This document shows, one piece after another, positions 24,359 to 38,732 of a stretch of 64,000 nt of DNA. The stretch covers positions 992,001-1,056,000 of the forward strand of contig NZ_CP061718.1 in NCBI RefSeq assembly GCF_014764365.1, given 5' to 3'. Each line of letters starts with the position of its first letter. Positions within the stretch are counted from its first letter, which is position 1. Below the pieces are notes generated by a model. The model was not told the origin of the DNA, did not search any database, and saw only the letters and a program-made list of their open reading frames with translations. Source of the stretch: Roseococcus microcysteis. Lineage in GTDB: Bacteria; Pseudomonadota; Alphaproteobacteria; Acetobacterales; Acetobacteraceae. Made by a program: the position numbers and the translations under genes.

Positions 24359-24552
24359 CGGCCCAACTCCATCCGTGGCCCGGCGGGGGGCGGCGTGGTC
24401 GGGCCATCGGGCGTCTGGGGCGGCATTTCCTGCGGGATGGGCGGAAGGTCAGGCCCCGGCGCGGGCGGGGGGACATCGGGCCCGGGCGGCGGGGCGGGCG
24501 GCACCTCCGGCGGGGGCGGGTTCGGCCAGGTGGAGGCGACGTGGGACGCCAT
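24355..24552 (-). CDS. Proline-rich 65-residue peptide
   Basis: A short frame whose product is nearly half proline (repeats such as PPPAPGPDLPP). I use the ATG at 24552, which has AAGGAG about nine bases upstream; another ATG lies at 24570. The four-base overlap with the DUF1328 gene suggests it is really translated. There is no signal peptide or membrane segment. I recognise no family; the protein should be unstructured. Confidence 0.5.
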   Translation of the reverse strand: MASHVASTWPNPPPPEVPPAPPPGPDVPPPAPGPDLPPIPQEMPPQTPDGPTTPPPAGPRMELGR

Positions 24553-24610
24553 GGCGGGGATCTCCTTCATCTCCCCGCTTCAACGGCCCGTGGGCCGCCG
24601 GGTTTCAGCT

Positions 24611-27115
24611 TCAGCCGCGCAGACCGGACACGGGCGCCTCGCGGTCGGTCGAGAAGCGGATGTCGCAGGCCAGCCCCTCGGGGCGCCACTGGCGCTCGAT
24701 GGTGCCGCCCAGCGTGCCCTCGAAGCTGTGGGTGATGATCTGCGAGCCGAAGCTGACGCGCTCCGGCGGGCCCTCCAGCGGCGGCCCCCCGCTCTCGCGC
24801 CATTGCAGCACCACCTCCTGCCCGCGCAGCGACCAGCGCACTTCCAGCCGGCCTTCGGCCGTGGAGAGCGCGCCATACTTCGCGGCGTTGGTGGCGAGTT
24901 CGTGCAGCGCCATGGAGAGGGGCTGCGCCACATGCGGCCCGACCAGCACCTCCGGACCCTCCAGGGTGACGGGCGCATCCTCCTCGCCCACCCCAAAGGG
25001 TTCCAGCTCGTGGTGCAGCAGGTCGGCCACGCTGGCACCCTTCCAGCGGTGGCGGCCCAGCAGCGCCATGGTGCCGGCCAAGGCGCGGATGCGCGCCTCC
25101 AGCACCTCGACATATTCCTCATGCGTGTCGGCGGTGGTGACGCGCAGCAGGCCCGTGACGACGGCGAGCGCGTTCTTGGCCCGGTGCTCGACCTCATGGG
25201 CCAGCATCTCGCTGTGCGCCTCGGCCTCCTTGCGTTCCGTCACGTCATAGGCGACGCCGATCAGCCGCGCGCCGGGCCCGCCCTCGGGCGGCACGAGGCG
25301 CGCGCGCACGATGACCCAGATGGTCTCGACACCGCCCTCCGCCGTGGGGCGGTTGAGGCGGAACTCGCTGCGCAGCCAGCCGGCGCGGTTGGCCATCGCC
25401 ATCTCGCGGCGCACCCGCATCCGGTCCTCGGGGTGGAGCCGCCGCATCGCCTCCTGCAGGTCGGGCTGGCCCTCGGCGGGGTCGAAACCCCACAGCTCGA
25501 TCATCTTGGGCGACCAGTTGAGGGTGCGGCTGGCGGGGAACCATTCCCAGGTGCCGATGCCCACCGCCTCCTGCGCCAGGCGCAGCCGCGCATCGCTCTC
25601 GGCCAGCGCCATCTGCGTCTCGCGCAACGGCGTCACATCCACATGGGCGCCGCGCAGCACGCGGGGGCGGCCATCGGGGTCGCGCTGGATCTCGCCGCGC
25701 GCCGCGATCCAGCGCACCTCGCCCGCCGGCGTCACGATGCGGTAGCTCTGCGCGTAGTCGGTGATGCCGCTTGTCTCCGACACCGCCTCCAGCAGGGTGG
25801 ATTCCGCCCGATCACGGTCATCGGGGTGCAGACGGCGCACCCAGTCGGCATGCCCTTCCACGGCCGCGCGCGCGGCCAAGCCCTGCAGCGACATGTATTC
25901 AGGCGAGCGCAGGCTGACGCCGGTGGCGAGGTCCACCTCGAAGGTGCCGACCAAACCCAGGCGCGCGGCGCGGTTCAGCCGGTCGGCGTCACGCTCCAGG
26001 TCCCGACCCAGGGCGGCATTGGCGGCGCGCAGGCGCAGCTGGTCCGCGCGCACGCGCAGGCTCAGCCACAGCAGGGCCGCGCTGGCGGGCAGGCCGAAGA
26101 GGATGTAGCCCAACATGGCACGCTGCCAACGGGCCACGATCTCATGCCGCGGGCGCAGCGCCACCGCATGCACGTCGAAGCCTTCGACGGGATAGGCCGC
26201 GAAGAGCGCGGGCGCCCCATCCTGCGTGCGCGAGGAGGTGTAGATGTGCGAATGGCGCCGCCCCGCCGCGATCTCGTGGAAGGGGCTGTCCACGGCGACC
26301 TGGGGCAGCGGCTCCGTCTGGCCCAGGCTGCGGCTCAGAACATGGCCATCGTCGCGCACCAAGGCCAGGCTGTCCGTCGGCGCCTGAAGGCGGCGCATGC
26401 CCTCGGCCAGGGTGTTGGGGTCCACCGACACGCCGATGAGGCCATCGAAGGTCTCGCCCGGGGGGAGGTCATTGCCGGTGTCCTCGCGGCGGCGCGCCAC
26501 GGTGAACAGCAGCGAGCCCTGGATGCGGCCGCTGAACTGGCGGCTGACGAAGATCTGCGGCGCATCCTCGGCGCGCAGGGCCTCGAAATAATCGCGGTCC
26601 GCCATGGAGACGGCCGCCTCCGGCAAGGGCAGGCCCGTGATGAGCAGCGCCCTGCCCTCCCGGCTCACCACATGGCCGAAGGCGGCGTGCGGCAATTCGC
26701 GGATGATGCGGCCGAGTTCGCCCTGCAAGCCCGGCCCCGCGTTGAGGACCTGCTCATCCGTCAGCCCGCGCAGGCGCTCATTGATGCGGCCCGCGCCGAC
26801 GGCATAGCCCGTGAGCGCGCGCGCGCCATATTCCGCGGTGGCCTCGGCCGAGCGGAGCAGTTCCTCGCCCGCCTCGGCCCAGGTGAGGCGCCACATCACC
26901 CACCCGCCGCCGCCCAGCATGCACAAAGGCAGCAGCACGGCCATGAGGGGCAACAGCTGCACGAGGCGCGTGCCACGGGTCTGCGGCGCCCGGCTATTGC
27001 CGCGCAGGGATTCCGGCAGACCGCCCCGGGCATCGCCCCGCGGCCTGGCTGACGGCATGCTGCCGTTTGGCGTGGCCGTGACCCGAAGCTCGGCGGATTT
27101 GGAGGCGTGGGTCAC
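24611..27115 (-). CDS. Cache/PAS sensor histidine kinase, HWE type
   Basis: An 834-residue membrane sensor kinase. Two membrane helices (about residues 52-75 and 328-350) enclose an extracytoplasmic Cache-like sensing domain. Two PAS domains follow (about 385-500 and 508-635), then an HWE/HisKA_2 kinase (640-834) with the phospho-acceptor block HEVEHRAKNALAVV, the N-box HELATNAAKYGAL and the later W-x-E. HWE kinases often feed PhyR and the EcfG general stress response, and an EcfG-like sigma is encoded just downstream. The GTG start at 27115 is not well supported; the ATG at 27058 is an alternative. Confidence 0.9.
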   Translation of the reverse strand: MTHASKSAELRVTATPNGSMPSARPRGDARGGLPESLRGNSRAPQTRGTRLVQLLPLMAVLLPLCMLGGGGWVMWRLTWAEAGEELLRSAEATAEYGARALTGYAVGAGRINERLRGLTDEQVLNAGPGLQGELGRIIRELPHAAFGHVVSREGRALLITGLPLPEAAVSMADRDYFEALRAEDAPQIFVSRQFSGRIQGSLLFTVARRREDTGNDLPPGETFDGLIGVSVDPNTLAEGMRRLQAPTDSLALVRDDGHVLSRSLGQTEPLPQVAVDSPFHEIAAGRRHSHIYTSSRTQDGAPALFAAYPVEGFDVHAVALRPRHEIVARWQRAMLGYILFGLPASAALLWLSLRVRADQLRLRAANAALGRDLERDADRLNRAARLGLVGTFEVDLATGVSLRSPEYMSLQGLAARAAVEGHADWVRRLHPDDRDRAESTLLEAVSETSGITDYAQSYRIVTPAGEVRWIAARGEIQRDPDGRPRVLRGAHVDVTPLRETQMALAESDARLRLAQEAVGIGTWEWFPASRTLNWSPKMIELWGFDPAEGQPDLQEAMRRLHPEDRMRVRREMAMANRAGWLRSEFRLNRPTAEGGVETIWVIVRARLVPPEGGPGARLIGVAYDVTERKEAEAHSEMLAHEVEHRAKNALAVVTGLLRVTTADTHEEYVEVLEARIRALAGTMALLGRHRWKGASVADLLHHELEPFGVGEEDAPVTLEGPEVLVGPHVAQPLSMALHELATNAAKYGALSTAEGRLEVRWSLRGQEVVLQWRESGGPPLEGPPERVSFGSQIITHSFEGTLGGTIERQWRPEGLACDIRFSTDREAPVSGLRG

Positions 27116-27345: not shown

Positions 27346-28917
27346 TCAGAAGAGTTGCGCCGGCAACCAGGTGGCCAGCGCCGGAAAGACCATGACAAAC
27401 GCGATGGCCAGCAACTGCAACAGCACATAGGGGATGACGCCACGGTAGATATCCCCCGTGCCCACCCCCGCCGGCACCACCCCGCCCAGGTAGAACAGCG
27501 AGAAGCCGAAGGGTGGCGTGAGGAAGCTGGTCTGCAGGTTCAGCGCGATCAGTACCGCGAGCCAGATGGGGTCGATGCCCATGGCCAGCAGCACCGGGCC
27601 CACGATGGGGACCACGATGATGGTGATCTCCACGAAGTCGAGGAAGAAGCCCATCAGGAAGATCAGGACCATCACCGCGACCAGCGCGCCATGCGCGCCG
27701 CCGGGAATGAGGGAGAGCAACTCCTTCACCGTCTCGTCGCCACCCAGGCCCCGGAACACCAGCGAGAAGAGCGTGGCGCCGATCAGGGTCGCGAAGATCA
27801 TGGCCGTGATGGTCATGGTGGAATGCGACACGGCGGACAGCACCCCGCCCCGGAAGGTGCGCCACAGCGCGAGCGCGATGCCCGCGGCCAGGATGACCAC
27901 CAGCACGCCCGCCACGCCGATGGCGATGCGGTCGGACAGCGGGGGTGCGGCACGGCCCAGCCGCATGTCGAAGAAGACGCCCAGAAGCACGAGCCCTACG
28001 GCCGCCAGCCCCGCCAGCCAGATCAGCCAGCCGCGCGGCCCCTTGTGGCGCAACCCCGCCAGCAGCGTGGCGCCGATGGCGCCCACCGAGGCGGCCTCGG
28101 TCGGCGTCGCCACCCCGCCCAGGATGGAGCCCAGCACGGCCACCACCAGAATGATGGGTGGCAGCAGCGCGCGCAGCAGCTGGCCGGTGGTGACGCGCCC
28201 GGCCTCCTCGGGCGCCATGGCCGGGCCCATTTCGGGCCGCCACAGGCAGAGCAGCAATTGGTAGAGGATGTAGAGCCCCACCAGCATCAGCCCGGGGATC
28301 ATGGCGCCGGCAAAGAGCTGCCCCACCGAGACCGTCTGCACCGAGAACAGCCCCTGGGCCAATTGCGCCTGCTGGTAGGCGGCCGAGATGACCTCGCCCA
28401 GGATGACCATGACGGTGGAGGGCGGGATGATCTGCCCCAGCGTCCCCGCCGCGCAGACCGTGCCGCAGGCGAAGCGCTTGTCATAGCCGCGTCGCAGCAT
28501 GGCCGGCAGCGCGATCAGCCCCATGGTGACGACGGTGGCCCCCACGATGCCCGTGGAGGCCGCCAGCAGCGCGCCCACCACCGAGACGCTGATGGCCAGG
28601 CCTCCGCGCACCGTGCCGAAGAGGCGCCCCATGGCCTCCAGCAGCTCCTCCGCGATGCGGGAGCGTTCGAGCATGATGCCCATGAAGACGAACAGCGGGA
28701 TCGCGACCAGCGTCTCCCCCGTCATGGTGCCGAAGATGCGCTGCGCCAGCGCCGCGAGCAGGAAGGTGTCGAAGACGCCGAGCAGGATGCCCGCCGTGCC
28801 GAAGACGATGGCGCAGCCCACCAGCAGGAAGACGACGGGAATGCCGGTGAGGATCAGCCCGCAGAGCGAGGCGAACATGAGCAGGTCCAGCACCTGCCCG
28901 ATGGCGGCGGTGCTCAT
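27346..28917 (-). CDS. TRAP transporter large permease (DctM)
   Basis: A 523-residue DctM-family membrane protein with about 12-14 hydrophobic segments, longer than the usual 430 because of a hydrophilic/hydrophobic insert in the middle, a feature of the TakM-like subgroup. Conserved pieces include PLFVFMGIMLERS and the IPPSTVMVILGE loop. It couples solute uptake to the sodium gradient. Its start overlaps the small-permease stop by four bases. It is last in the run that begins with hutI. Confidence 0.92.
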   Translation of the reverse strand: MSTAAIGQVLDLLMFASLCGLILTGIPVVFLLVGCAIVFGTAGILLGVFDTFLLAALAQRIFGTMTGETLVAIPLFVFMGIMLERSRIAEELLEAMGRLFGTVRGGLAISVSVVGALLAASTGIVGATVVTMGLIALPAMLRRGYDKRFACGTVCAAGTLGQIIPPSTVMVILGEVISAAYQQAQLAQGLFSVQTVSVGQLFAGAMIPGLMLVGLYILYQLLLCLWRPEMGPAMAPEEAGRVTTGQLLRALLPPIILVVAVLGSILGGVATPTEAASVGAIGATLLAGLRHKGPRGWLIWLAGLAAVGLVLLGVFFDMRLGRAAPPLSDRIAIGVAGVLVVILAAGIALALWRTFRGGVLSAVSHSTMTITAMIFATLIGATLFSLVFRGLGGDETVKELLSLIPGGAHGALVAVMVLIFLMGFFLDFVEITIIVVPIVGPVLLAMGIDPIWLAVLIALNLQTSFLTPPFGFSLFYLGGVVPAGVGTGDIYRGVIPYVLLQLLAIAFVMVFPALATWLPAQLF

Positions 28918-29462
28918 GCCTCGCCCTGCCTTTGGCGCTGCGGGAAGTGGGTCGTGGCCGCGCCCGTCAGCACCGCCACGCAGCGGATGCCGATGGAGAC
29001 GGCCTGCAAGCCCAGCAATATCCCCATGGCCGGGATGAGCGATTTCAGCGCGGGCACGAAAGGCACGCCCCCCAGCGCCATGGGCCCCTCATTCTGCATC
29101 CAGGATCGCGCCGCGTAGTCCCAGGAGGCCCAGACCACCAGCGCGCAGAAGGGAAGTGCGGCGACGATCACGCAGGCGAGGTCCACCGCCGCCTGCCGCC
29201 GCACGGACCAGCCGGCGTAGAAGACGTCCACCCGCACATGCTGGTCCACCATCCAGGTGTAGCCCATGACCAGCATGAACAGCGTGGCATGGATGTAGAT
29301 CACGCTCTCCTGCATCCAGACGAAGGAGGAGCCATAGGCGTAGCGCAGCACCACGACGATGAACTGCACCAGCACCACCCCCAGCGCCAACCACTTGACG
29401 CCCTGGGCCAGGAAGCGGCTCAGGGCGTCATGCGCGTCGGCGGCACGCAGCAGGAGGCGCAA
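28914..29462 (-). CDS. TRAP transporter small permease (DctQ)
   Basis: A 182-residue DctQ-type protein with four membrane helices and the usual conserved tryptophan/arginine region (YTWMVDQHVRVDVFY near residues 68-82). It pairs with the large permease encoded immediately downstream; the two genes overlap by four bases. The binding-protein gene ends five bases upstream of its start. Together they form a complete TRAP system. Confidence 0.92.
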   Translation of the reverse strand: MRLLLRAADAHDALSRFLAQGVKWLALGVVLVQFIVVVLRYAYGSSFVWMQESVIYIHATLFMLVMGYTWMVDQHVRVDVFYAGWSVRRQAAVDLACVIVAALPFCALVVWASWDYAARSWMQNEGPMALGGVPFVPALKSLIPAMGILLGLQAVSIGIRCVAVLTGAATTHFPQRQRQGEA

Positions 29463-29467
29463 GCCGC

Positions 29468-30553
29468 TCAGCCCCAGCGAATGGGCAGGGCGCGCGAGTT
29501 GAAGTTCCCCGCGTAGGATTGCAGCATGTAGGCTTGGCTGCGGTTGCGGAACTCCGCGTAGCTGTCGGCGATGCGCTTCACCAGCGGGTCCTGGTGGGCG
29601 CGCAACTCGGCCAGGATTTCGCCCGCGATGTTGCCGAAGGCGATCAGCATGTCGCGCGGCACTTCCTTCACCTGCACGCCATGGCGCGTCACCAGCTCGT
29701 TCAGCGCGATGGGGTGGCGCACGTCGTATTCGCTGGTCGTCTCCTCGTGCAGGGAGAGGGCGCAGAAGCGCACCACGGCCTTCAGGTCATCCGGCAGGGC
29801 GTTCCAGCGCGCCATGTTGATGCCGATCTCCTCGGCGGAGGACGGCTCCTGCACACCCGGGTAGTAGTAGTTCTTGGCCACCTGGTGCAGGCCGAGCGGC
29901 AGGTCCGAGAAGGGGCCGACGAATTCGGCGGCGTCAATCGTGCCCGATTGCAGGGCGGCGAAGATCTGCCCGGCCGGCAGCGACACGACCGAGGCGCCGG
30001 CGCGGCGGAACATCTCGCCACCCAGGCCGGCCGTGCGGTAGCGCAGGCCGCGGAAATCCTCGAGGCTGTTCAACTCGCGGCGGAAGAAGCCCATCCATTG
30101 CGGGCCGCTGTCGCCCACGATGAAGCCCTTCACGCCGAAGCGGGCATACATCTCGTCATACATGGCCTGGCCGCCGCCATGCATCATCCAGCCCTGCCGC
30201 TCATAGGCCGTCATGCCGTAGGGGAAGCTGCCGAAGAAGCCGATGCCGGGGGACTTGGAAATCCAGAAGGAGGGCACGCCGTGGTAGAGATCGGCCGTGC
30301 CGGCCGCCACCGCGTCGAAGGCGCCGGCGGGGGGCACCACCTCGCCCGCGGCGAAGAGGCGCACCGTCAGCCGCCCGCCCGACATCTGGCCGATGCGGTC
30401 GGCGCAGCGCTGCGCGGCCACGCCGGGGCCCGGCAGGTTGCGCGGCCAGATGGTGACCATGCGCCACTCGATCCGGCCCTGGCTGAGGGCGGGGGTGGCC
30501 AAGGTCGCGGCGGTCGCGGCCGCGGCCGAACCGATGATGGTGCGTCTTTGCAT
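29468..30553 (-). CDS. TRAP transporter substrate-binding protein (DctP/TakP-like)
   Basis: A 361-residue periplasmic binding protein with an N-terminal signal (MQRRTIIGSAAAATAATLAT, cleavage near ALSQG) and the DctP fold. The motif YRTAGLGGEMFRRAGAS and the later GTIDAAEFVGPFSD fit the TakP subgroup, which binds 2-oxo acids or similar carboxylates. Gene order after the hut genes and the dioxygenase gene suggests a ligand related to histidine or imidazole carboxylates; this is inferred. Confidence 0.9.
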   Translation of the reverse strand: MQRRTIIGSAAAATAATLATPALSQGRIEWRMVTIWPRNLPGPGVAAQRCADRIGQMSGGRLTVRLFAAGEVVPPAGAFDAVAAGTADLYHGVPSFWISKSPGIGFFGSFPYGMTAYERQGWMMHGGGQAMYDEMYARFGVKGFIVGDSGPQWMGFFRRELNSLEDFRGLRYRTAGLGGEMFRRAGASVVSLPAGQIFAALQSGTIDAAEFVGPFSDLPLGLHQVAKNYYYPGVQEPSSAEEIGINMARWNALPDDLKAVVRFCALSLHEETTSEYDVRHPIALNELVTRHGVQVKEVPRDMLIAFGNIAGEILAELRAHQDPLVKRIADSYAEFRNRSQAYMLQSYAGNFNSRALPIRWG

Positions 30554-30588
30554 CTTCGTCTCTGCCTCTTGTGTTCTTGTGGGTGGTG

Positions 30589-31389
30589 TCAGGTGAAGCG
30601 GGGGAAGTCCGGCCCTTCGAGGGGCGCGCCATCCGCCAGGCGCAGATGCCGCATGGGGGGAGAGCCTCGGCCGCCACGGTCGCGGAACACCGCGTCATCG
30701 CCCACCCAGCGCGCGGAGAAGACGCGCCGCCGCCGCTGCGGCGAGGTGTTGGCCGGTGCGCCATGCATCGTGCGGTAGTGGAAGGCCACCGCGTCACCCG
30801 GCTGCATCTCCCAGCCCAGGATGCGGTGCTTCTCGCGCTCGGCGTCGATGTCGGGCATGTCCTCGCGGTCATCGCCCTCGTAGAGGTCGGTGCCGTCGAA
30901 GCGCTTGGGCTTGAGCGCCTTGGTCCAGAGATGGCTGCCGGCCACGCATTCCAGCGTCACGTCGCGGCCCACGGGGTCGAGGGGAATCCAGAAGCTGACG
31001 CTCTGCTCCGCCTCCACGCAGTAATAGGGCGAATCCTGGTGCCAGGGGGTGACGAGGCTCGTCCCCGGCTCCTTCACCAGCACATGGTCGTGGAAGAAGC
31101 GCGCACCCTGGCTGCCCATGAGTCGGCGCGCGATGGCCGCCCCGGGTCCCTGCTCCACGAAGGCGCGGAATTCCGGGATGCGCTGCCAGTTGCACAAATC
31201 CTGGAAGAAGCGCGCGCTGCCATCCTTGGGCGTGTAGCTGCGCTCATAGGGGCCGGGATGGGCCATCAGCGTCTCGATGCCGGCGCGGAGCGGTTCCACC
31301 CAGTCGGCGAAGGCGCCGCGCAGGAGGATGGCGCCATCCTCGGCGAAGGCCTGAACCTCGGGGTCGGTGGTGGTGGCGGCTTGGTCCAT
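30589..31389 (-). CDS. Phytanoyl-CoA dioxygenase (PhyH) family protein
   Basis: A 266-residue Fe(II)/2-oxoglutarate-dependent dioxygenase. The metal triad is visible as HQD in TPWHQDSPYYC (near residue 117) and a distal His in AFHYRTMHGAP, with an Arg shortly after that would bind 2-oxoglutarate. Bacterial members hydroxylate or demethylate many small molecules, so the family name says little about the substrate. It sits 66 bases after hutU and 36 bases before the TRAP binding protein, suggesting that it converts the imported compound into something the hut enzymes can use. Confidence 0.88.
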   Translation of the reverse strand: MDQAATTTDPEVQAFAEDGAILLRGAFADWVEPLRAGIETLMAHPGPYERSYTPKDGSARFFQDLCNWQRIPEFRAFVEQGPGAAIARRLMGSQGARFFHDHVLVKEPGTSLVTPWHQDSPYYCVEAEQSVSFWIPLDPVGRDVTLECVAGSHLWTKALKPKRFDGTDLYEGDDREDMPDIDAEREKHRILGWEMQPGDAVAFHYRTMHGAPANTSPQRRRRVFSARWVGDDAVFRDRGGRGSPPMRHLRLADGAPLEGPDFPRFT

Positions 31390-31454
31390 GCGGGTCTCTC
31401 CCTGCGCGGCGATGCTGCGGTTGCGCTGTCAGCCTGTAAAGCGGCGCCGCGGCC

Positions 31455-33124
<1,670 letters not shown>

Positions 33125-33128
<4 letters not shown>

Positions 33129-34642
33129 GCGTCGGTGTCCAGCTCGGGCAGGGGGTGGGCGGTGGCGGCGGCGAGCGCGCCGTCCCGCACCAGGGATGTG
33201 GCGGCGGCGATGTCCGGCGCCAGGAAACGGTCCGCCAGCAGCGGCGCGATGCGCGCGCGGATGGCGGCATGGGCGGCTTCCAGCGGCACGGAGCTGGTCA
33301 GCGGGCGCCGATGCTCCAGCGCCTCGGCCGCCGCCAGCGCCTCGATGCCGATGATGGCCGCCGCGTTCTCCGCCATCTCCAGCAGGCGCCAGGCCGCGTG
33401 GGTGGCCATGGACACATGGTCTTCCTGGTTGGCCGAGGTCGGGATGCTGTCCACCGAGGCCGGCGCCGCGCGCTGCTTGTTCTCGGAAGCGAGCGCGGCC
33501 GCCGTCACCTGCGCGATCATCAGCCCCGAATTCAGCCCCGCATCGCGTGCCAGGAAGGCGGGCAGGCCGGACATCACCGGGTCCACCAGCAGGGCGATGC
33601 GGCGTTCGGCCAGGTTGCCGATCTCGGCGAGCACCAGGGCGATCTGGTCGGCGGCGAAGGCCACCGGTTCCGCATGGAAATTCCCGCCGGAGAGGATGGA
33701 CCCATCCTCCATGACCAGCGGGTTGTCGGTGACGGCATTGGCCTCCACCGCCAGGGTGCGCGCGGCGAAGCGCAGCAGGTCCAGCCCCGCGCCCATCACC
33801 TGCGGCTGGCAGCGCAGCGAATACGGGTCCTGCACGCGGTCATCGCCCTCGCGGTGGCTTTCGCGGATGGCGCTGCCCGCCAGCAGCCCGCGCAGCGCGT
33901 GGGCCACGTCGCGCTGGCCCGCATGGCCGCGCAGCGCATGGATGCGCGGGTCGAAGGGCGTGTCGGAGCCGCGCAGCGCGTCCACCGTCAGCGCGCCTGA
34001 AACCAGCGCCGCCTGGAACACCCGATGCGCGGCGAAGAGCCCCGCCAGCGCCAGCGCCGTGGACACCTGCGTGCCATTGATCAGCGCCAGCCCCTCCTTG
34101 GGCCCGAGGGCGACGGGCGAAAGCCCCGCGCCCGCCAGCGCCCGCGTCGCCGGGACATTCGGCAGAACCGCGCCTTCGCCCAGCATCGCCGCCGTCATGT
34201 GCGCCAGCGGCGCCAAATCGCCCGAGGCGCCGACCGACCCCTTGGCCGGGATCAGCGGCAGCACGTCGCGCGCGCGCATGGCCTCGATCTGCGCCACCAC
34301 CTCCCACCGCACGCCCGAGGCGCCGCGCGCCAGGCTCGCGGCCTTCATCGCCATGATCAGCCGCACCACGGGTGCCGGCAGCGGCGCCCCCACGCCGCAG
34401 GCGTGCGACAGAATCAGGTTGCGCTGCAGCGCGGCCAGATCCGCATCGCCGATGCGTACGGAGGCCAGCTTGCCGAAGCCCGTGTTCACGCCATAGGCCG
34501 TCTCGCCCCGCGCGATGACGCCGGCCACCGCGGCCGCGCTGCGCTCCACCGCCGCCCGCGCGCCTTCGTCGAGCGGCGTGGCCGCCCCCTCCAGCACGGC
34601 GCGCCATTGCGCCAGCGTGACCGCGCCCGGAACCAGCGTCAT
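33125..34642 (-). CDS. hutH: Histidine ammonia-lyase
   Basis: A 505-residue histidine ammonia-lyase, which removes ammonia from histidine to give urocanate. The Ala-Ser-Gly triad that forms the MIO cofactor is present in [15 protein letters not shown] near residue 140. The active-site tyrosine region [12 protein letters not shown] occurs near residue 50. The ATG at 34642 overlaps the hutI stop by four bases; the longer frame to 35275 lies inside hutI and is a shadow. Confidence 0.97.
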
Positions 34643-35847
34643 GCCCGCACCCCTCCGTGATAGCGCGCCCAAAGCGGCGAGGGCCCGATCTGCGCCACGA
34701 CCTGCGCCAGGTTCTCCACCGACCACAGCGCCAGGTCGGCGCGCTTGCCCACCTCCAGGCTGCCCGCCTCCGCCTGCATCCCCAGCGCGCGCGCGGCGTG
34801 CAGCGTCATGCCGCGCCACACCTCCTCCACCGTCATGCCGAACAGCACGCAGGCGAGTGTCGCCGAAACGCGCAGCGAGGCGATGGGCGAGGAACCCGGG
34901 TTCAGGTCCGTCGCCACCGCCATCGCGACACCTTCCGCACGGAAGGCGGCGATGGGCGGCTTGCGCGCCTCGTTCAGCATGAGGAAGGCGCCGGGCAGGA
35001 TCACGGCCACCGTGCCCGCCTGCGCCATGGCCGCGGCCCCGGCATTGGAGCAATATTCCAGGTGGTCGGCCGAGAGCGCGCCGAAGCGCGCGGCCAGCGC
35101 GGCACCGCCCGTGTCGCTCAACTGTTCCGCATGGGATTTCACCGGCAGGCCCGCCATGCGCGCCGCGGTGAAGACGCGGGCGCATTCGGCGCCCGTGAAG
35201 GCGATGCCCTCCTGGAAGACATCCACCGCGTCCGCCAGACCCTCGGCCGCCAGGGCGGGGATCATGCGGTCGCACACCAGGTCGAGATAGCCCGCACGCG
35301 TGCCATCCGGCGGCACGGCATGGGCGCCGAGATAGGTGGCGCGCACCGTCACCGCCCGCTGCCCCGCCAGGGCACGCGCCACGCGCAACTGTCGCCGCTC
35401 GGTCTCCTCGTCGAGCCCGTAGCCGGACTTCACCTCGACGGTGGTGACGCCCTCGGCCAGCAGCGCATCCAGCCGCGGCAGGGCGGCGGCCAGCAGCGCC
35501 GCCTCATCCGCCGCGCGGGTGGCGCGCACGGTGGAGGCGATGCCGCCGCCCGAGCGCGCGATCTCGGCATAGCTCTCGCCGGCCAGGCGACGCGCGAATT
35601 CCTCTGAGCGGTCACCCGCGAAGACGAGGTGCGTGTGGCAATCCACGAGGCCGGGCGTGATCCAGCGGCCGTCGCACTCCACCCGCTCGGCCGCGTCGAA
35701 GCGCGGCGCGCCCTCGCGTGGGCCGGCATAGGCGATGCGCCCGTCGCGCACCGCCAGCACGCCATCCTCGACCACGCCGAGGCCCGCGCCCGCCATGGTG
35801 GCCAGCCGCGCGCCCTCGAACAGCAGATCGGTCGGGATGCCCGCCAT
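34639..35847 (-). CDS. hutI: Imidazolonepropionase
   Basis: A 402-residue amidohydrolase-fold enzyme that opens imidazolonepropionate to N-formimidoylglutamate. The metal-binding HxH is in [16 protein letters not shown] (near residue 70), and a second metal histidine lies in KSHAEQLSD. It is first in hutI-hutH-hutU and is divergent from hutF, with a HutC-type operator in the 100-base gap. Confidence 0.96.
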
Positions 35848-35914: not shown

Positions 35915-35926
35915 ATGTATAGACAT
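35915..35926. promoter_or_regulatory. Probable HutC (GntR) operator between hutI and hutF
   Basis: ATGTATAGACAT is a near-perfect palindrome (only the centre differs) and contains GTATAGAC, which fits the GTMTAKAC core known for HutC/FadR-type GntR regulators. It sits 22 bases before the hutF start in the divergent gap, so it can control hutIHU and hutFC together. A GATAAT hexamer at 35911-35916 overlaps it and may be a -10 box. Confidence 0.7.
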
Positions 35927-35947: not shown

Positions 35948-37306
35948 ATGCGCAAGCTGCTTTTCGCCCATGCCCTGCTGCCCGAAGGCTGGCGCCGCGA
36001 GGTGCTGGTCACGCTCGATGCCACGGGCCGCATCTCCAGCGTGGAGCCTGACGCAACCGGCGGCGAATACCAGCACGCCATCGCCCTGCCCGGCCTGCCC
36101 AACCTGCATTCCCATGCCTTCCAGCGTGGCATGGCGGGCCTCACGGAACAGGCCGGCGCCAACGAGGACAGCTTCTGGACCTGGCGCGAGCTGATGTACC
36201 GCTTCCTGGGCCAGCTTACACCAGAGGATGTCGAGGCCCTGGCCACCCTGGCCTATGCCGAGATGCTGGAGACGGGCTTCACCCGTGTGGGCGAGTTCCA
36301 CTACCTGCACCATGACGCCGAGGGCCGCCCCTACGCCAACCCCGCGGAGATGGCCGCGCGCATCGCCGGCGCGGCCGACGCCACCGGCATCCACCTCACC
36401 CTGCTGCCCAGCTTCTATGCCCATGGCGAGGCCGGCGGCGGCGCCCCCCTGCCCGCCCAGCGCCGCTTCCTGAACGACCGCGACGGCTTCGCCCGCCTGC
36501 TGGAAGCCAGCCGCGCCGCCATCGCCCCCTTGCCGGGGGCCGTCCTGGGCGCCGCACCCCACTCCCTGCGCGCCGCCACCTTCGCGGAAATCCGCGACGT
36601 GGTCGCCATGCTGGCGCCCGGCGAACCCCTGCACATCCACGCCGCCGAACAGCTGCGCGAGGTCGAGACGTGCCGCGCCATCCTGGGCGCACCCCCCATC
36701 CAGGCCCTGCTGGACCAGGTGGGCCTCGATGCGCGCTGGTGCCTGATCCATGCCACCCATGGCACCGAGGCGGAACTCGCGGCCGTGGCACAAGCGGGCG
36801 CGGTGGTGGGCCTCTGCCCCGTCACCGAGGCCAATCTGGGCGATGGCATCTTCCCCGCGCCCAGCTATCGCGCGGCGGGGGGCCGCTACGGCGTGGGCAC
36901 GGACAGCAATGTGCTGATCGGCGCGGCGGAGGAACTCCGCACGCTGGAATACGGGCAGCGCCTCGCGCTGCGCACCCGCAACGCGCTGGCCCCGCGCGAG
37001 GCCTCCACCGGCCGCGCGTTGTGGGATGCCGCGCTGGCGGGCGGCACCCAGGCCCTGGCCGCCGGCCCCGCCGGCATCACCCCCGGCGCCTGGGCGGACC
37101 TTGTGCTGCTCGACCCCGCGCACCCCGCGCTCGCCGCGCGCGAGGGCGACCGCTGGCTGGATGCGCTGGTCTTCGCCACCCGCACCTCGCCCATCCGCGA
37201 AGTCTGGGTACGCGGGCGACGCGTGGTGGAGGATGGGCGCCACCCCCTGCGCGCGGCAGCCGAGGCGCGCGTCTCCGCGGTGCTGGGCCGCATCCTGGCC
37301 GCATGA
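35948..37306 (+). CDS. hutF: Formimidoylglutamate deiminase
   Basis: A 452-residue amidohydrolase that converts N-formimidoylglutamate to N-formylglutamate and ammonia, the step that defines the five-enzyme hut route. Metal-ligand regions are LPNLHSHAFQRGMAG (near residue 55), HIHAAEQ and a later CLIHATH. The ATG at 35948 has GGAGA seven bases upstream. The stop overlaps the hutC start by four bases. The expected next enzyme, HutG, is not encoded nearby. Confidence 0.95.
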   Translation: MRKLLFAHALLPEGWRREVLVTLDATGRISSVEPDATGGEYQHAIALPGLPNLHSHAFQRGMAGLTEQAGANEDSFWTWRELMYRFLGQLTPEDVEALATLAYAEMLETGFTRVGEFHYLHHDAEGRPYANPAEMAARIAGAADATGIHLTLLPSFYAHGEAGGGAPLPAQRRFLNDRDGFARLLEASRAAIAPLPGAVLGAAPHSLRAATFAEIRDVVAMLAPGEPLHIHAAEQLREVETCRAILGAPPIQALLDQVGLDARWCLIHATHGTEAELAAVAQAGAVVGLCPVTEANLGDGIFPAPSYRAAGGRYGVGTDSNVLIGAAEELRTLEYGQRLALRTRNALAPREASTGRALWDAALAGGTQALAAGPAGITPGAWADLVLLDPAHPALAAREGDRWLDALVFATRTSPIREVWVRGRRVVEDGRHPLRAAAEARVSAVLGRILAA

Positions 37307-38073
37307 CCGACTTCCCGCTGGATGGCGAAGGCCCGCTGCACGCGCAAATCCGGCGCGCGGTGGCCCAGGCCATTCTGTCCGGCCGCATCCCGCCCGGCGG
37401 GCGCATCCCCTCCGAGGCGGAGCTGATGACGCTGTTCGGCGCCTCGCGCATGACGGTGCATCGGGCGCTGGCCCAGCTCGCCGCCGAGGGGCTGGTCCGC
37501 CGCAACCGCCGCGCCGGCACCATCGCAAGCCCCGAAGCACGCGGCCGCGCCGTCTTCGAGATCTGGGACATCGGCGCCGAGATCGCGGCCGCGGGGGGCG
37601 TCCACAGCCATGACATCCTGCACCGCGCGACGCGCCCCGCCACCGCCGCCGACGCCGCGGCGCTGACCGTGGCCGAGGGCGCGCCCATCCTGGCGCTGAC
37701 CACCCGCCACCTGGCCGATGGCCGCCCCGTGCAGCTGGAGGAACGGCGCATCCATCTCCAGGCCGCCCCCGAGGCGGCGGCCGAGCGCTTCACCGAGACC
37801 CCGCCCGGCCGCTGGCTGCTGGACCACATCGCCTGGACCGAGGCCGAGCACAGCATCCTCGCCACAAGCACGCCCGCGCGCATCGCCCGCTTCCTCGGCA
37901 TGCCGCCGGGCGAGCCCGCGCTGGTCGTGGAACGCCGCACCTGGAATGGCGAAATTCCGGTCACTTTCGCGCGGCTCTGGCATCCGGGCGGGCGGCACCG
38001 GCTGGTGGGGCGCTTCACGGCGGGCGGGGCCGGCTTGCCAACGCCGCCGGGCCGCCCGCACCATCGGACATGA
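37303..38073 (+). CDS. hutC: Histidine utilisation repressor HutC (GntR family)
   Basis: A 256-residue GntR/HutC regulator with an N-terminal winged helix (about residues 10-75, IPSEAELMTLFGASRMTVHR) and a C-terminal UTRA ligand domain (about 95-240). HutC proteins repress hut genes and let go when urocanate binds. The gene overlaps hutF by four bases and the DUF1028 gene by four, and a matching operator precedes hutF, so autoregulation is likely. Confidence 0.93.
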   Translation: MTDFPLDGEGPLHAQIRRAVAQAILSGRIPPGGRIPSEAELMTLFGASRMTVHRALAQLAAEGLVRRNRRAGTIASPEARGRAVFEIWDIGAEIAAAGGVHSHDILHRATRPATAADAAALTVAEGAPILALTTRHLADGRPVQLEERRIHLQAAPEAAAERFTETPPGRWLLDHIAWTEAEHSILATSTPARIARFLGMPPGEPALVVERRTWNGEIPVTFARLWHPGGRHRLVGRFTAGGAGLPTPPGRPHHRT

Positions 38074-38732
38074 CCTTCTCCCTCATCGGCCATTGCGCCC
38101 GCACGGGGCAGTTCGGCTGCGCCGTCACCACCTCGGCCATGGGCGTGGGCGCCCGGGTGCCCTTCGCGGAAGCGGGGCTCGGCGCCGTGCTGACCCAGCA
38201 CCGCACCGACCCGCGCCTGGGTCCGCGCGGCCTTGATTTGCTGCGCAGCGGCTGCTCGGCGGAGGAGGCCCTGGCCGCGCTGGTCGCCAGCACACCCCAT
38301 CACCGCTGGCGGCAGATCGCGATCATGGACCGCGCCGGCCGCACCGCGCATTTCGACGGCGAGGCGGTGAAGCACGCCCGCGCGGCCGTGCATGCGTCGG
38401 GCTGCGTGGCACTCGGCAACATCATGGCCAACACCGACGTGCCCACCGCCATGGCCACCGCCTTCGCCGCGGACCCCGGCGAACCATTGGCCGAACGCCT
38501 GATGCGCGCGCTGGAAGCGGGCGAGGAGGCGGGCGGCGAGGGACGGCCCCTGCTCTCCGCCTGCCTGCTCGTCGTGCATGAGCAGCGCTTTCCCTATGTG
38601 GACCTGCGCGTGGACCTGGCCGACGCCGCCCTGCCCGCGCTGCGCCTGATGTGGAACCGCTACCGCCCCGACATGGACGAGCATGTGGTCCGCGCCGTGG
38701 ACCCGGAGGCCGCCAAGCCGCCGGTGCTGTAG
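38070..38732 (+). CDS. DUF1028 domain-containing protein
   Basis: A 220-residue DUF1028 protein beginning MTFSLIGHCARTGQFGCAVT, the usual family start, which resembles N-terminal nucleophile hydrolases; Thr2 could be the nucleophile if the initiator Met is removed, but this is inferred. It overlaps hutC by four bases and is therefore part of the hut operon. Family members are annotated as putative hydrolases without firm function. Its place next to hutF, where hutG might be expected, raises the possibility of a role in formylglutamate or related amide cleavage. Confidence 0.9.
   Translation: MTFSLIGHCARTGQFGCAVTTSAMGVGARVPFAEAGLGAVLTQHRTDPRLGPRGLDLLRSGCSAEEALAALVASTPHHRWRQIAIMDRAGRTAHFDGEAVKHARAAVHASGCVALGNIMANTDVPTAMATAFAADPGEPLAERLMRALEAGEEAGGEGRPLLSACLLVVHEQRFPYVDLRVDLADAALPALRLMWNRYRPDMDEHVVRAVDPEAAKPPVL

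What the first reader, a model, noticed from the sequence alone, without database searches (positions are those of the whole stretch)
27346..35847. hutIHU runs into a 2-oxoglutarate dioxygenase and a TRAP importer
On one strand the order is hutI-hutH-hutU, then a PhyH-family dioxygenase 66 bases later, then a complete TRAP transporter 36 bases after that. The spacing suggests one transcript. A TakP-like binding protein plus an Fe(II)/2OG enzyme suggests uptake and oxidative conversion of a histidine-related compound (for example a methylated or betaine form, or an imidazole carboxylate) into a hut substrate. I know of no described pathway of this form.
Basis: partly seen in the sequence, partly recalled or inferred. 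Interest (0 to 1): 0.75.

Follow-up and report, generated by a model that had tools for sequence, protein, structure and literature searches.

The report
Dioxygenase and importer feeding histidine breakdown
A bacterial histidine-breakdown operon carries an extra oxygen-using enzyme and a nutrient importer, and relatives of that enzyme sit beside histidine-breakdown genes in many other bacteria, which suggests an undescribed way of feeding another imidazole compound into the pathway.

Summary
In detail: hutI-hutH-hutU (each overlapping the next), 65 bases, a PhyH-family Fe(II)/2-oxoglutarate dioxygenase with intact metal ligands, 35 bases, DctP-DctQ-DctM. The one HutC-type operator found in the window lies between hutF and hutI.
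The link recurs. Hut enzymes lie in the flanks of 39 of 80 PhyH orthologues (27 of 46 with at least 9 kb on both sides), with several importer types. A HutC-type motif lies within 300 bp upstream of 41 of 79 (0.015 expected), but of only 2 of 17 in the window's own TRAP lineage. In 385 genomes of the class, 30 of 33 with a copy of at least 50% identity have hutU, against 45 of 304 without one.
Most likely the enzyme oxidises the side chain of an imported imidazole acid and feeds hut at urocanate; imidazole propionate is my leading candidate. One draft genome has hutF-C-I-G-U plus the dioxygenase but no detectable hutH. The substrate is unproven: the binding protein keeps most of TakP's 2-oxo-acid site, and one relative lost hutIHU at this locus but kept PhyH-TRAP. 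Ten searches of an open-access library found no description.

The parts
35915..35926 (.). HutC-type operator ATGTATAGACAT between hutF and hutI
   Evidence: Only place in 64 kb with up to 2 mismatches (matches on both strands there); 0.21 matches expected, 0 of 100 shuffles with 2; same core motif upstream of PhyH in relatives
34639..35847 (-). hutI, imidazolonepropionase
   Evidence: TIGR01224 448 bits, cut-off 298
33125..34642 (-). hutH, histidine ammonia-lyase; start overlaps the hutI stop (ATGA)
   Evidence: TIGR01225 654 bits, cut-off 539; sequence
31455..33128 (-). hutU, urocanate hydratase; start overlaps the hutH stop
   Evidence: TIGR01228 959 bits, cut-off 375
30589..31389 (-). PhyH-family Fe(II)/2-oxoglutarate dioxygenase, 266 aa; H117, D119, H209 and R221/R222 invariant
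   Evidence: PF05721 2.9e-28; 34-row alignment; model pLDDT 93, pTM 0.91; best PDB match MysH
29468..30553 (-). DctP, TRAP binding protein of the 2-oxo-acid (TakP-like) group, 361 aa
   Evidence: PF03480 7.3e-41; 7ug8 ketoacid-binding protein, 4yzz, 4yic and 2hzk (TakP by recall) at 6e-56 or better; Q152, R173, E210, E236 in 17 of 17 rows
28914..29462 (-). DctQ, TRAP small permease, TTG start
   Evidence: PF04290 1.1e-13
27346..28917 (-). DctM, TRAP large permease
   Evidence: PF06808 6.2e-67; TIGR00786 282 bits, cut-off 268
35948..37306 (+). hutF, formimidoylglutamate deiminase, divergent
   Evidence: TIGR02022 587 bits, cut-off 413
37303..38073 (+). hutC, histidine utilisation repressor
   Evidence: TIGR02018 265 bits, cut-off 220
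38070..38732 (+). DUF1028 protein overlapping the end of hutC, possible part of the hut unit
   Evidence: PF06267 6.2e-62; relatives of it lie in 10 of 43 hut-linked loci scanned

Best explanation
The PhyH gene encodes a hut-linked accessory enzyme that opens a second entrance to the histidine utilisation pathway. An imidazole carboxylic acid with a C3 side chain enters through an exchangeable importer (here the TakP-like TRAP). The dioxygenase then oxidises its side chain with O2 and 2-oxoglutarate to a compound that HutU can take. The most likely reaction is imidazole propionate (dihydrourocanate) to urocanate, by desaturation or by hydroxylation next to the ring and loss of water. HutC keeps the set silent until urocanate, or an analogue, is present. 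Shown: gene order, conserved active-site residues, predicted fold, linkage, operator-like sites, HutC-family repressors, co-occurrence. Inferred: one transcript, the substrate, the reaction, the ligand of the importer, HutC control. My confidence that PhyH feeds an imidazole compound into hut is about 0.75; the figure below is for the whole statement, substrate included.
For: Linkage to hut enzymes in 39 of 80 loci, and in 27 of 46 with at least 9 kb on both sides. PhyH inside hut operons in L131 (48% identity) and L039 (66%). HutC-type motif within 300 bp upstream of PhyH in 41 of 79 loci against 0.015 per 300 bp elsewhere in the same loci; 15 of 40 loci without hut in the flank still have it. 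All seven GntR proteins tested, the window's and six from five PhyH loci (L034, L025 twice, L026, L060, L005), pass the curated HutC cut-off. hutU is present in 30 of 33 genomes with PhyH at 50% identity or more, 21 of 48 with a weaker match and 45 of 304 with none at E<=1e-50; Fisher p 4e-19 for the first against the last. hutU in 48 of 50 and hutH in 48 of 50 PhyH genomes tested, out of 80. G018 has hutF-hutC, hutI-hutG-hutU, a HutD-like gene and PhyH with a LIV-type importer but no HutH-like match at E<=1e-8, nor have its 7 genus-mates, so the product should enter below histidine. Only 11 of 50 have the HisC-like aminotransferase at E<=1e-80 and the window's genome lacks a close copy (29%), so a route through imidazolepyruvate is not general. 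The hut link is seen with different importers in the locus: TRAP 8 of 17, SsuA-like 12 of 24, HAAT 17 of 20, LIV 2 of 2. Fe ligands invariant, model confident. [quoted passage not shown]
Against: DctP keeps TakP's cation ligands and carboxylate Arg, which fits a 2-oxo or 2-hydroxy acid such as imidazolelactate better than imidazole propionate, which has no alpha oxygen. In L004 hutIHU are deleted at this locus and PhyH-TRAP stays, so PhyH-TRAP may be useful without hut; hut elsewhere in that genome was not checked. 41 of 80 loci, 9 of 17 TRAP loci and all 3 Opp and 14 unassigned-importer loci have no hut enzyme in the flank, many because the contig ends. The motif stands within 300 bp upstream of PhyH in only 2 of 17 TRAP loci; in the window it stands only before hutI. 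G018 is a metagenome-assembled genome. I recall the motif as fitting the general signature of the HutC subfamily. Of two SAR116 genomes tested, one has hutU and hutH and the other, small and probably incomplete, has neither, and the SAR116 loci show no hut enzyme in the flank. The nearest solved relative, MysH, is known to me as an enzyme that removes an N-linked group, a different reaction. Co-occurrence is not corrected for kinship or genome size.
Confidence: 0.4

Rival explanations
1. PhyH hydroxylates the carbon next to the carboxylate, turning imidazole propionate into imidazolelactate (or imidazolelactate into imidazolepyruvate), which is then oxidised and transaminated to histidine and enters hut through HutH.
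For: 14 loci of acetic acid bacteria carry an LldD-like FMN dehydrogenase, a GlcD-like FAD dehydrogenase and a HisC-like aminotransferase with PhyH, 12 of them with hutH in the flank (families tested on L060). The four Halomonas/Vreelandella loci have the HisC-like gene and hutH; L026 was shown by family search to have LldD-like and GlcD-like genes too. Two Zavarzinia loci have the HisC-like and GlcD-like genes. DctP keeps the TakP 2-oxo-acid site. Human PHYH, of the same family, is a 2-hydroxylase (entry title).
Against: The HisC-like gene is in only 11 of 50 PhyH genomes; the window's genome has no close HisC-like or LldD-like copy (29% and 38%); G018 has no detectable HutH.
Confidence: 0.22
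2. PhyH removes a group from nitrogen, for example the methyl of a methylhistidine or a MysH-like N-linked group, giving histidine or urocanate plus an aldehyde.
For: Closest solved structure is MysH (phmmer 1.3e-31; Foldseek 9e-22, 26% identity), recalled as a palythine-forming N-dealkylase. A paper on PHYHD1 and related dioxygenases reports demethylation of 2'-O-methylated nucleosides (PMC12709175, title and start of abstract in the listing).
Against: Does not explain the hydroxyacid dehydrogenases and aminotransferase in one set of lineages; a histidine product does not fit G018 without HutH. Genes for handling formaldehyde were not searched for.
Confidence: 0.13
3. PhyH-TRAP is a separate module for some other 2-oxo or 2-hydroxy acid that settled beside hut by chance or for regulation only.
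For: 9 of 17 TRAP loci lack hut in the flank and only 2 of 17 have the motif within 300 bp of PhyH; L004 kept PhyH-TRAP after losing hutIHU there, dN/dS 0.07-0.15 over the whole divergence from the window; TakP-type site.
Against: hut linkage recurs with other importers and in beta- and gammaproteobacteria (L039, L045, L026, L029, L030, L038); PhyH lies between hutH and hutU in L131; genome co-occurrence with hutU.
Confidence: 0.2
4. PhyH acts on a sulphur-bearing imidazole such as thiourocanate and releases urocanate.
For: L039 also carries a second urocanase close to the S-methyl-thiourocanate hydratase model (866 bits, cut-off 880).
Against: Seen in one locus only; an ergothionase was not looked for.
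Confidence: 0.05

Closest known systems
hut pathway and HutC regulon of proteobacteria
   Same: hutI, hutH, hutU, hutF, hutC, operator between divergent units, variable importers in the regulon
   Different: Adds a PhyH dioxygenase; in the published HutC regulon reconstruction (PMC5343134, passages) the HutC section names hut enzymes and transporters, and the words dioxygenase and imidazole do not occur in the main text; its supplements were not seen
MysH, Fe/2OG dioxygenase of mycosporine-like amino acid pathways
   Same: Closest solved relative by sequence and fold
   Different: 26% identity; hut neighbourhood; substrate pocket not compared
TakP, 2-oxo-acid TRAP binding protein
   Same: Q, R, E and E of the cation and carboxylate site at a constant offset
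   Different: Tyr100 is replaced by F96; ligand unknown
Imidazolyl-lactate and imidazolylpropionate degradation by Pseudomonas testosteroni (Coote and Hassall 1973)
   Same: A bacterium reported by title to degrade the candidate substrates (title in reference lists)
   Different: Text not held; genes unknown to me; whether that species has this PhyH was not tested

Membership tests
PhyH Fe(II)/2OG dioxygenases | HxD...H metal ligands and a 2OG-binding Arg | tested here: met
   H117, D119, H209, R221, R222 in 34 of 34 aligned rows; which Arg binds 2OG is inferred
PhyH Fe(II)/2OG dioxygenases | Fold of the family | tested here: met
   Model pLDDT 93; Foldseek MysH, SnoK, SnoN, EctD, PHYH
PhyH Fe(II)/2OG dioxygenases | 2OG- and O2-dependent activity | not testable with these tools
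   needs enzyme assay
Ectoine hydroxylase EctD | Match to a curated EctD model | tested here: not met
   Only NCBIfam match at E<=0.001 is 1-deoxypentalenic acid hydroxylase, 22.9 bits, cut-off 550; that NCBIfam holds an EctD model is recalled
MysH | Located with mycosporine biosynthesis genes | not tested
   no search for those genes was made
HutC regulon | HutC-type operator in front of the transcription unit | tested here: met
   Window 35915-35926; 41 of 79 PhyH loci within 300 bp upstream, but 2 of 17 TRAP loci
HutC regulon | A HutC repressor encoded nearby | tested here: met
   7 of 7 GntR proteins tested pass TIGR02018
HutC regulon | HutC binding and urocanate induction of PhyH | not testable with these tools
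   needs EMSA and expression data
TRAP transporter (DctPQM) | Binding protein, small and large permease together | tested here: met
   Pfam DctP, DctQ, DctM
TakP-type 2-oxo-acid receptors | Cation ligands Gln156, Glu214, Glu240 and carboxylate Arg177 | tested here: met
   Q152, E210, E236, R173 by a constant offset of 4, 17 of 17 rows; mapped by offset, the TakP alignment itself was not printed
TakP-type 2-oxo-acid receptors | Carboxylate Tyr100 | tested here: not met
   F96 in 17 of 17
TakP-type 2-oxo-acid receptors | Binds 2-oxo acids | not testable with these tools
   needs ligand screen; structure prediction of DctP failed (pLDDT 38)

The most novel reading that the evidence does not exclude
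A widespread hut-associated 2-oxoglutarate dioxygenase lets aerobic proteobacteria degrade imidazole propionate: it converts this gut-microbial product, reported in older work as a non-metabolisable hut inducer, back into urocanate, with lineage-specific importers.
Probability: 0.3. Interest if true: 0.8.

Novelty: new variant of a known kind. Interest (0 to 1): 0.63.

Why it matters
Histidine utilisation is a textbook pathway, and an oxygenase entrance to it, recurring in alpha-, beta- and gammaproteobacteria, did not turn up in the papers I could search. If the substrate is imidazole propionate, this would be an enzyme that destroys a metabolite linked to type 2 diabetes and heart disease, and a direct test is simple. 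Even if the substrate is another imidazole acid, a family now named only after phytanoyl-CoA dioxygenase would gain a metabolic role.

Tried and rejected
Chance neighbourhood of an unrelated PhyH-TRAP pair was considered and is disfavoured by recurrence with other importers and by co-occurrence, but kept as a rival. Ectoine hydroxylase was set aside after the family search. A HisC/LldD route in the window's own genome was sought and no close copies were found; a GlcD-like gene at 59% was found, but among its annotated neighbours none pointed to imidazoles. Other genomes with hutU but no hutH at E<=1e-100 (G078, G121, G311, G312, G416) were checked: G078 and G311 have 36-40% HutH-like proteins, G121 a 66% fragment, G312 and G416 only distant matches (27-31%), and G312's HutU match is only 51%; I did not count them as support. 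DctP structure prediction failed (pLDDT 38). The plus-strand ORF 24395-27052 gave no family; the likely gene there is a minus-strand HWE histidine kinase.

Literature: ten searches, of which 53 and 54 were on MysH and TakP; no paper linking a dioxygenase to hut was seen in the listings. Passages only were read in PMC1839085, PMC5343134, PMC12772324, PMC13320830, PMC9157411, PMC3953581, PMC5487837. The library is open-access only, so absence is weak evidence.

Counts and what was left out: one search found 261 relatives and kept the best 80. Of these 80 loci, 50 genomes were tested for HisC-like, hutU and hutH; 30 were not, L004 among them. Loci with short flanks were kept in the 39 of 80 count and dropped only for 27 of 46. 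One locus had under 300 bp upstream and is left out of 41 of 79. Importer labels were given by similarity anywhere in the locus, not by adjacency. In one search a second control on mechanical ORF starts gave 30 of 79 for the PhyH cluster and 55 of 744 for other clustered ORFs, some of which are hut or PhyH-operon genes.
Full report
What is there. hutI, hutH and hutU overlap each other by ATGA. Divergent from hutI lie hutF, hutC (both above their curated cut-offs) and a DUF1028 gene. A HutC-type operator, ATGTATAGACAT, stands between hutF and hutI and nowhere else in the 64 kb within two mismatches. No sigma-70-like promoter was found in the stretch, and no terminator-like site lies between hutU and DctP, which fits one transcript but does not prove it. 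The genome is one 4.2-Mb contig with a single match to this PhyH at E<=0.001; the nearest named PhyH relatives are in Roseococcus suduntuyensis and R. thiosulfatophilus, 98% identical.

The dioxygenase. Pfam PhyH at 2.9e-28. In 34 aligned rows the iron ligands H117, D119 and H209 and R221/R222 are invariant, and so are C66-N67-W68, H100, H102, K106, Y122, Y123, R163 and R227 among others; where these lie relative to the pocket was not examined. The predicted fold is confident (pLDDT 93, pTM 0.91). The closest solved structure is MysH (phmmer 1.3e-31; Foldseek E 9e-22, TM-score 0.79, 26% identity), then SnoK and SnoN, with GriE, EctD and human PHYH further down.

Linkage. Of 80 orthologous loci from genome contigs (56-98% identity; the best 80 of 261), 39 have a hut enzyme of at least 50% identity in the flank; of the 46 with at least 9 kb on both sides, 27 do. 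They include Acetobacteraceae, Reyranella, Variovorax, Halomonas/Vreelandella and a Rhizobiales genome. By importer in the locus, hut-linked loci are TRAP 8 of 17, SsuA-like 12 of 24, HAAT 17 of 20, LIV 2 of 2, Opp 0 of 3, unassigned 0 of 14. L039, a betaproteobacterium, has an IclR regulator, an arginase-family gene (below the agmatinase and HutG cut-offs), PhyH, hutU and hutH in a row.

Regulation. The core of the window's operator (TGTATAGACA, up to one mismatch, either strand) lies within 300 bp upstream of PhyH in 41 of 79 loci, against a density of 0.015 per 300 bp elsewhere in the same loci; 26 of 39 hut-linked and 15 of 40 unlinked loci have it. By importer: SsuA-like 21 of 24, HAAT 14 of 20, Opp 2 of 3, LIV 1 of 2, TRAP 2 of 17, unassigned 1 of 14. 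So the signal comes mostly from lineages other than the window's; in the window, L002 and L003 the site stands only before hutI. In L045 it stands before PhyH and before hutH-hutU. All seven GntR proteins tested from the window and five PhyH loci pass the curated HutC model. I recall that the motif also fits the general signature of the HutC subfamily.

Co-occurrence. In 385 genomes of the window's class hutU is present in 30 of 33 with a PhyH of at least 50% identity, 21 of 48 with a weaker match and 45 of 304 with none at E<=1e-50. This is not corrected for kinship or genome size. In 50 PhyH genomes out of the 80 loci, hutU is found in 48 (missing in G012 and G050) and hutH in 48 (missing in G018 and G050).

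Clues to the reaction. In 14 loci of acetic acid bacteria PhyH shares the locus with LldD-like, GlcD-like and HisC-like proteins, 12 of them with hutH, which I read as imidazolelactate to imidazolepyruvate to histidine. That part is not general: the HisC-like gene is in 11 of 50 and the window's genome has no close copy. G018 (L025, a Rhizobiales metagenome-assembled genome) has hutF-hutC, hutI-hutG-hutU, a HutD-like gene, PhyH, a LIV-type importer and two more HutC-type regulators, but no HutH-like protein at E<=1e-8, nor have 7 genus-mates. That favours a product at the level of urocanate. Imidazole propionate is urocanate with the double bond reduced, so its oxidation to urocanate is the simplest reaction that fits. 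Against it, DctP keeps the TakP residues that bind a cation and a 2-oxo acid, though not Tyr100 (PMC1839085, passages), which fits imidazolelactate or another 2-hydroxy or 2-oxo acid better.

A natural deletion. In L004 (Falsiroseomonas MAG) the start of hutF, a variant operator, the start of hutI and the end of hutU remain with the rest missing, and PhyH-TRAP follows intact at 87% DNA identity, with dN/dS 0.07-0.15 over the whole divergence. The operator lies about 370 bp upstream of PhyH there, outside the 300-bp count. The hut promoter region appears to serve PhyH-TRAP directly. It also warns that PhyH-TRAP may be useful without hut at this locus; the rest of that genome was not searched.

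Literature. Ten searches of the open-access library found no description (listed in Tried and rejected). A published HutC regulon reconstruction names hut enzymes and transporters, and its main text does not hold the words dioxygenase or imidazole (PMC5343134, passages). [quoted passage not shown]

Verdict. The claim that PhyH feeds an imidazole compound into hut is well supported (about 0.75); the substrate is a testable proposal (about 0.3-0.4).

Noticed in passing
window 38070-38732; L002, L003, L027, L033-L035, L048, L050, L052, L057: A DUF1028 protein sits in or beside the hut unit. Of 43 hut-linked loci scanned, 10 have DUF1028, 6 a HutG-like gene (the one in L039 is an arginase-family protein below the model cut-offs), none both and 27 neither, many with cut flanks. 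It may replace N-formylglutamate deformylase.
   Followed up: partly
L004 3064-3490: Scar of a natural deletion of hutI-hutH-hutU that leaves a HutC-type operator in front of an intact PhyH-TRAP.
   Followed up: partly
L058-L060, L064-L069, L071, L072, L075-L077 (acetic acid bacteria); L026, L029, L030, L038: Clusters with 2-hydroxyacid dehydrogenases, a HisC-like aminotransferase and usually hutH look like an imidazolelactate utilisation locus. A second Fe/2OG enzyme (DIOX_N, tested on L059 only) belongs to an 18-member cluster in these loci.
   Followed up: partly
L039 1047-2873: Second urocanase close to the S-methyl-thiourocanate hydratase model (866 bits, cut-off 880) in the same locus as PhyH-hutU-hutH.
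   Followed up: no
L135, L136, L140: A more distant PhyH group (52-54% identity) lies beside a 40-41% HutH-like lyase and, in L136, a LysR regulator; possibly a different substrate.
   Followed up: no
window 24611-27115 minus: HWE histidine kinase with PAS domains downstream of DctM, on the same strand.
   Followed up: no
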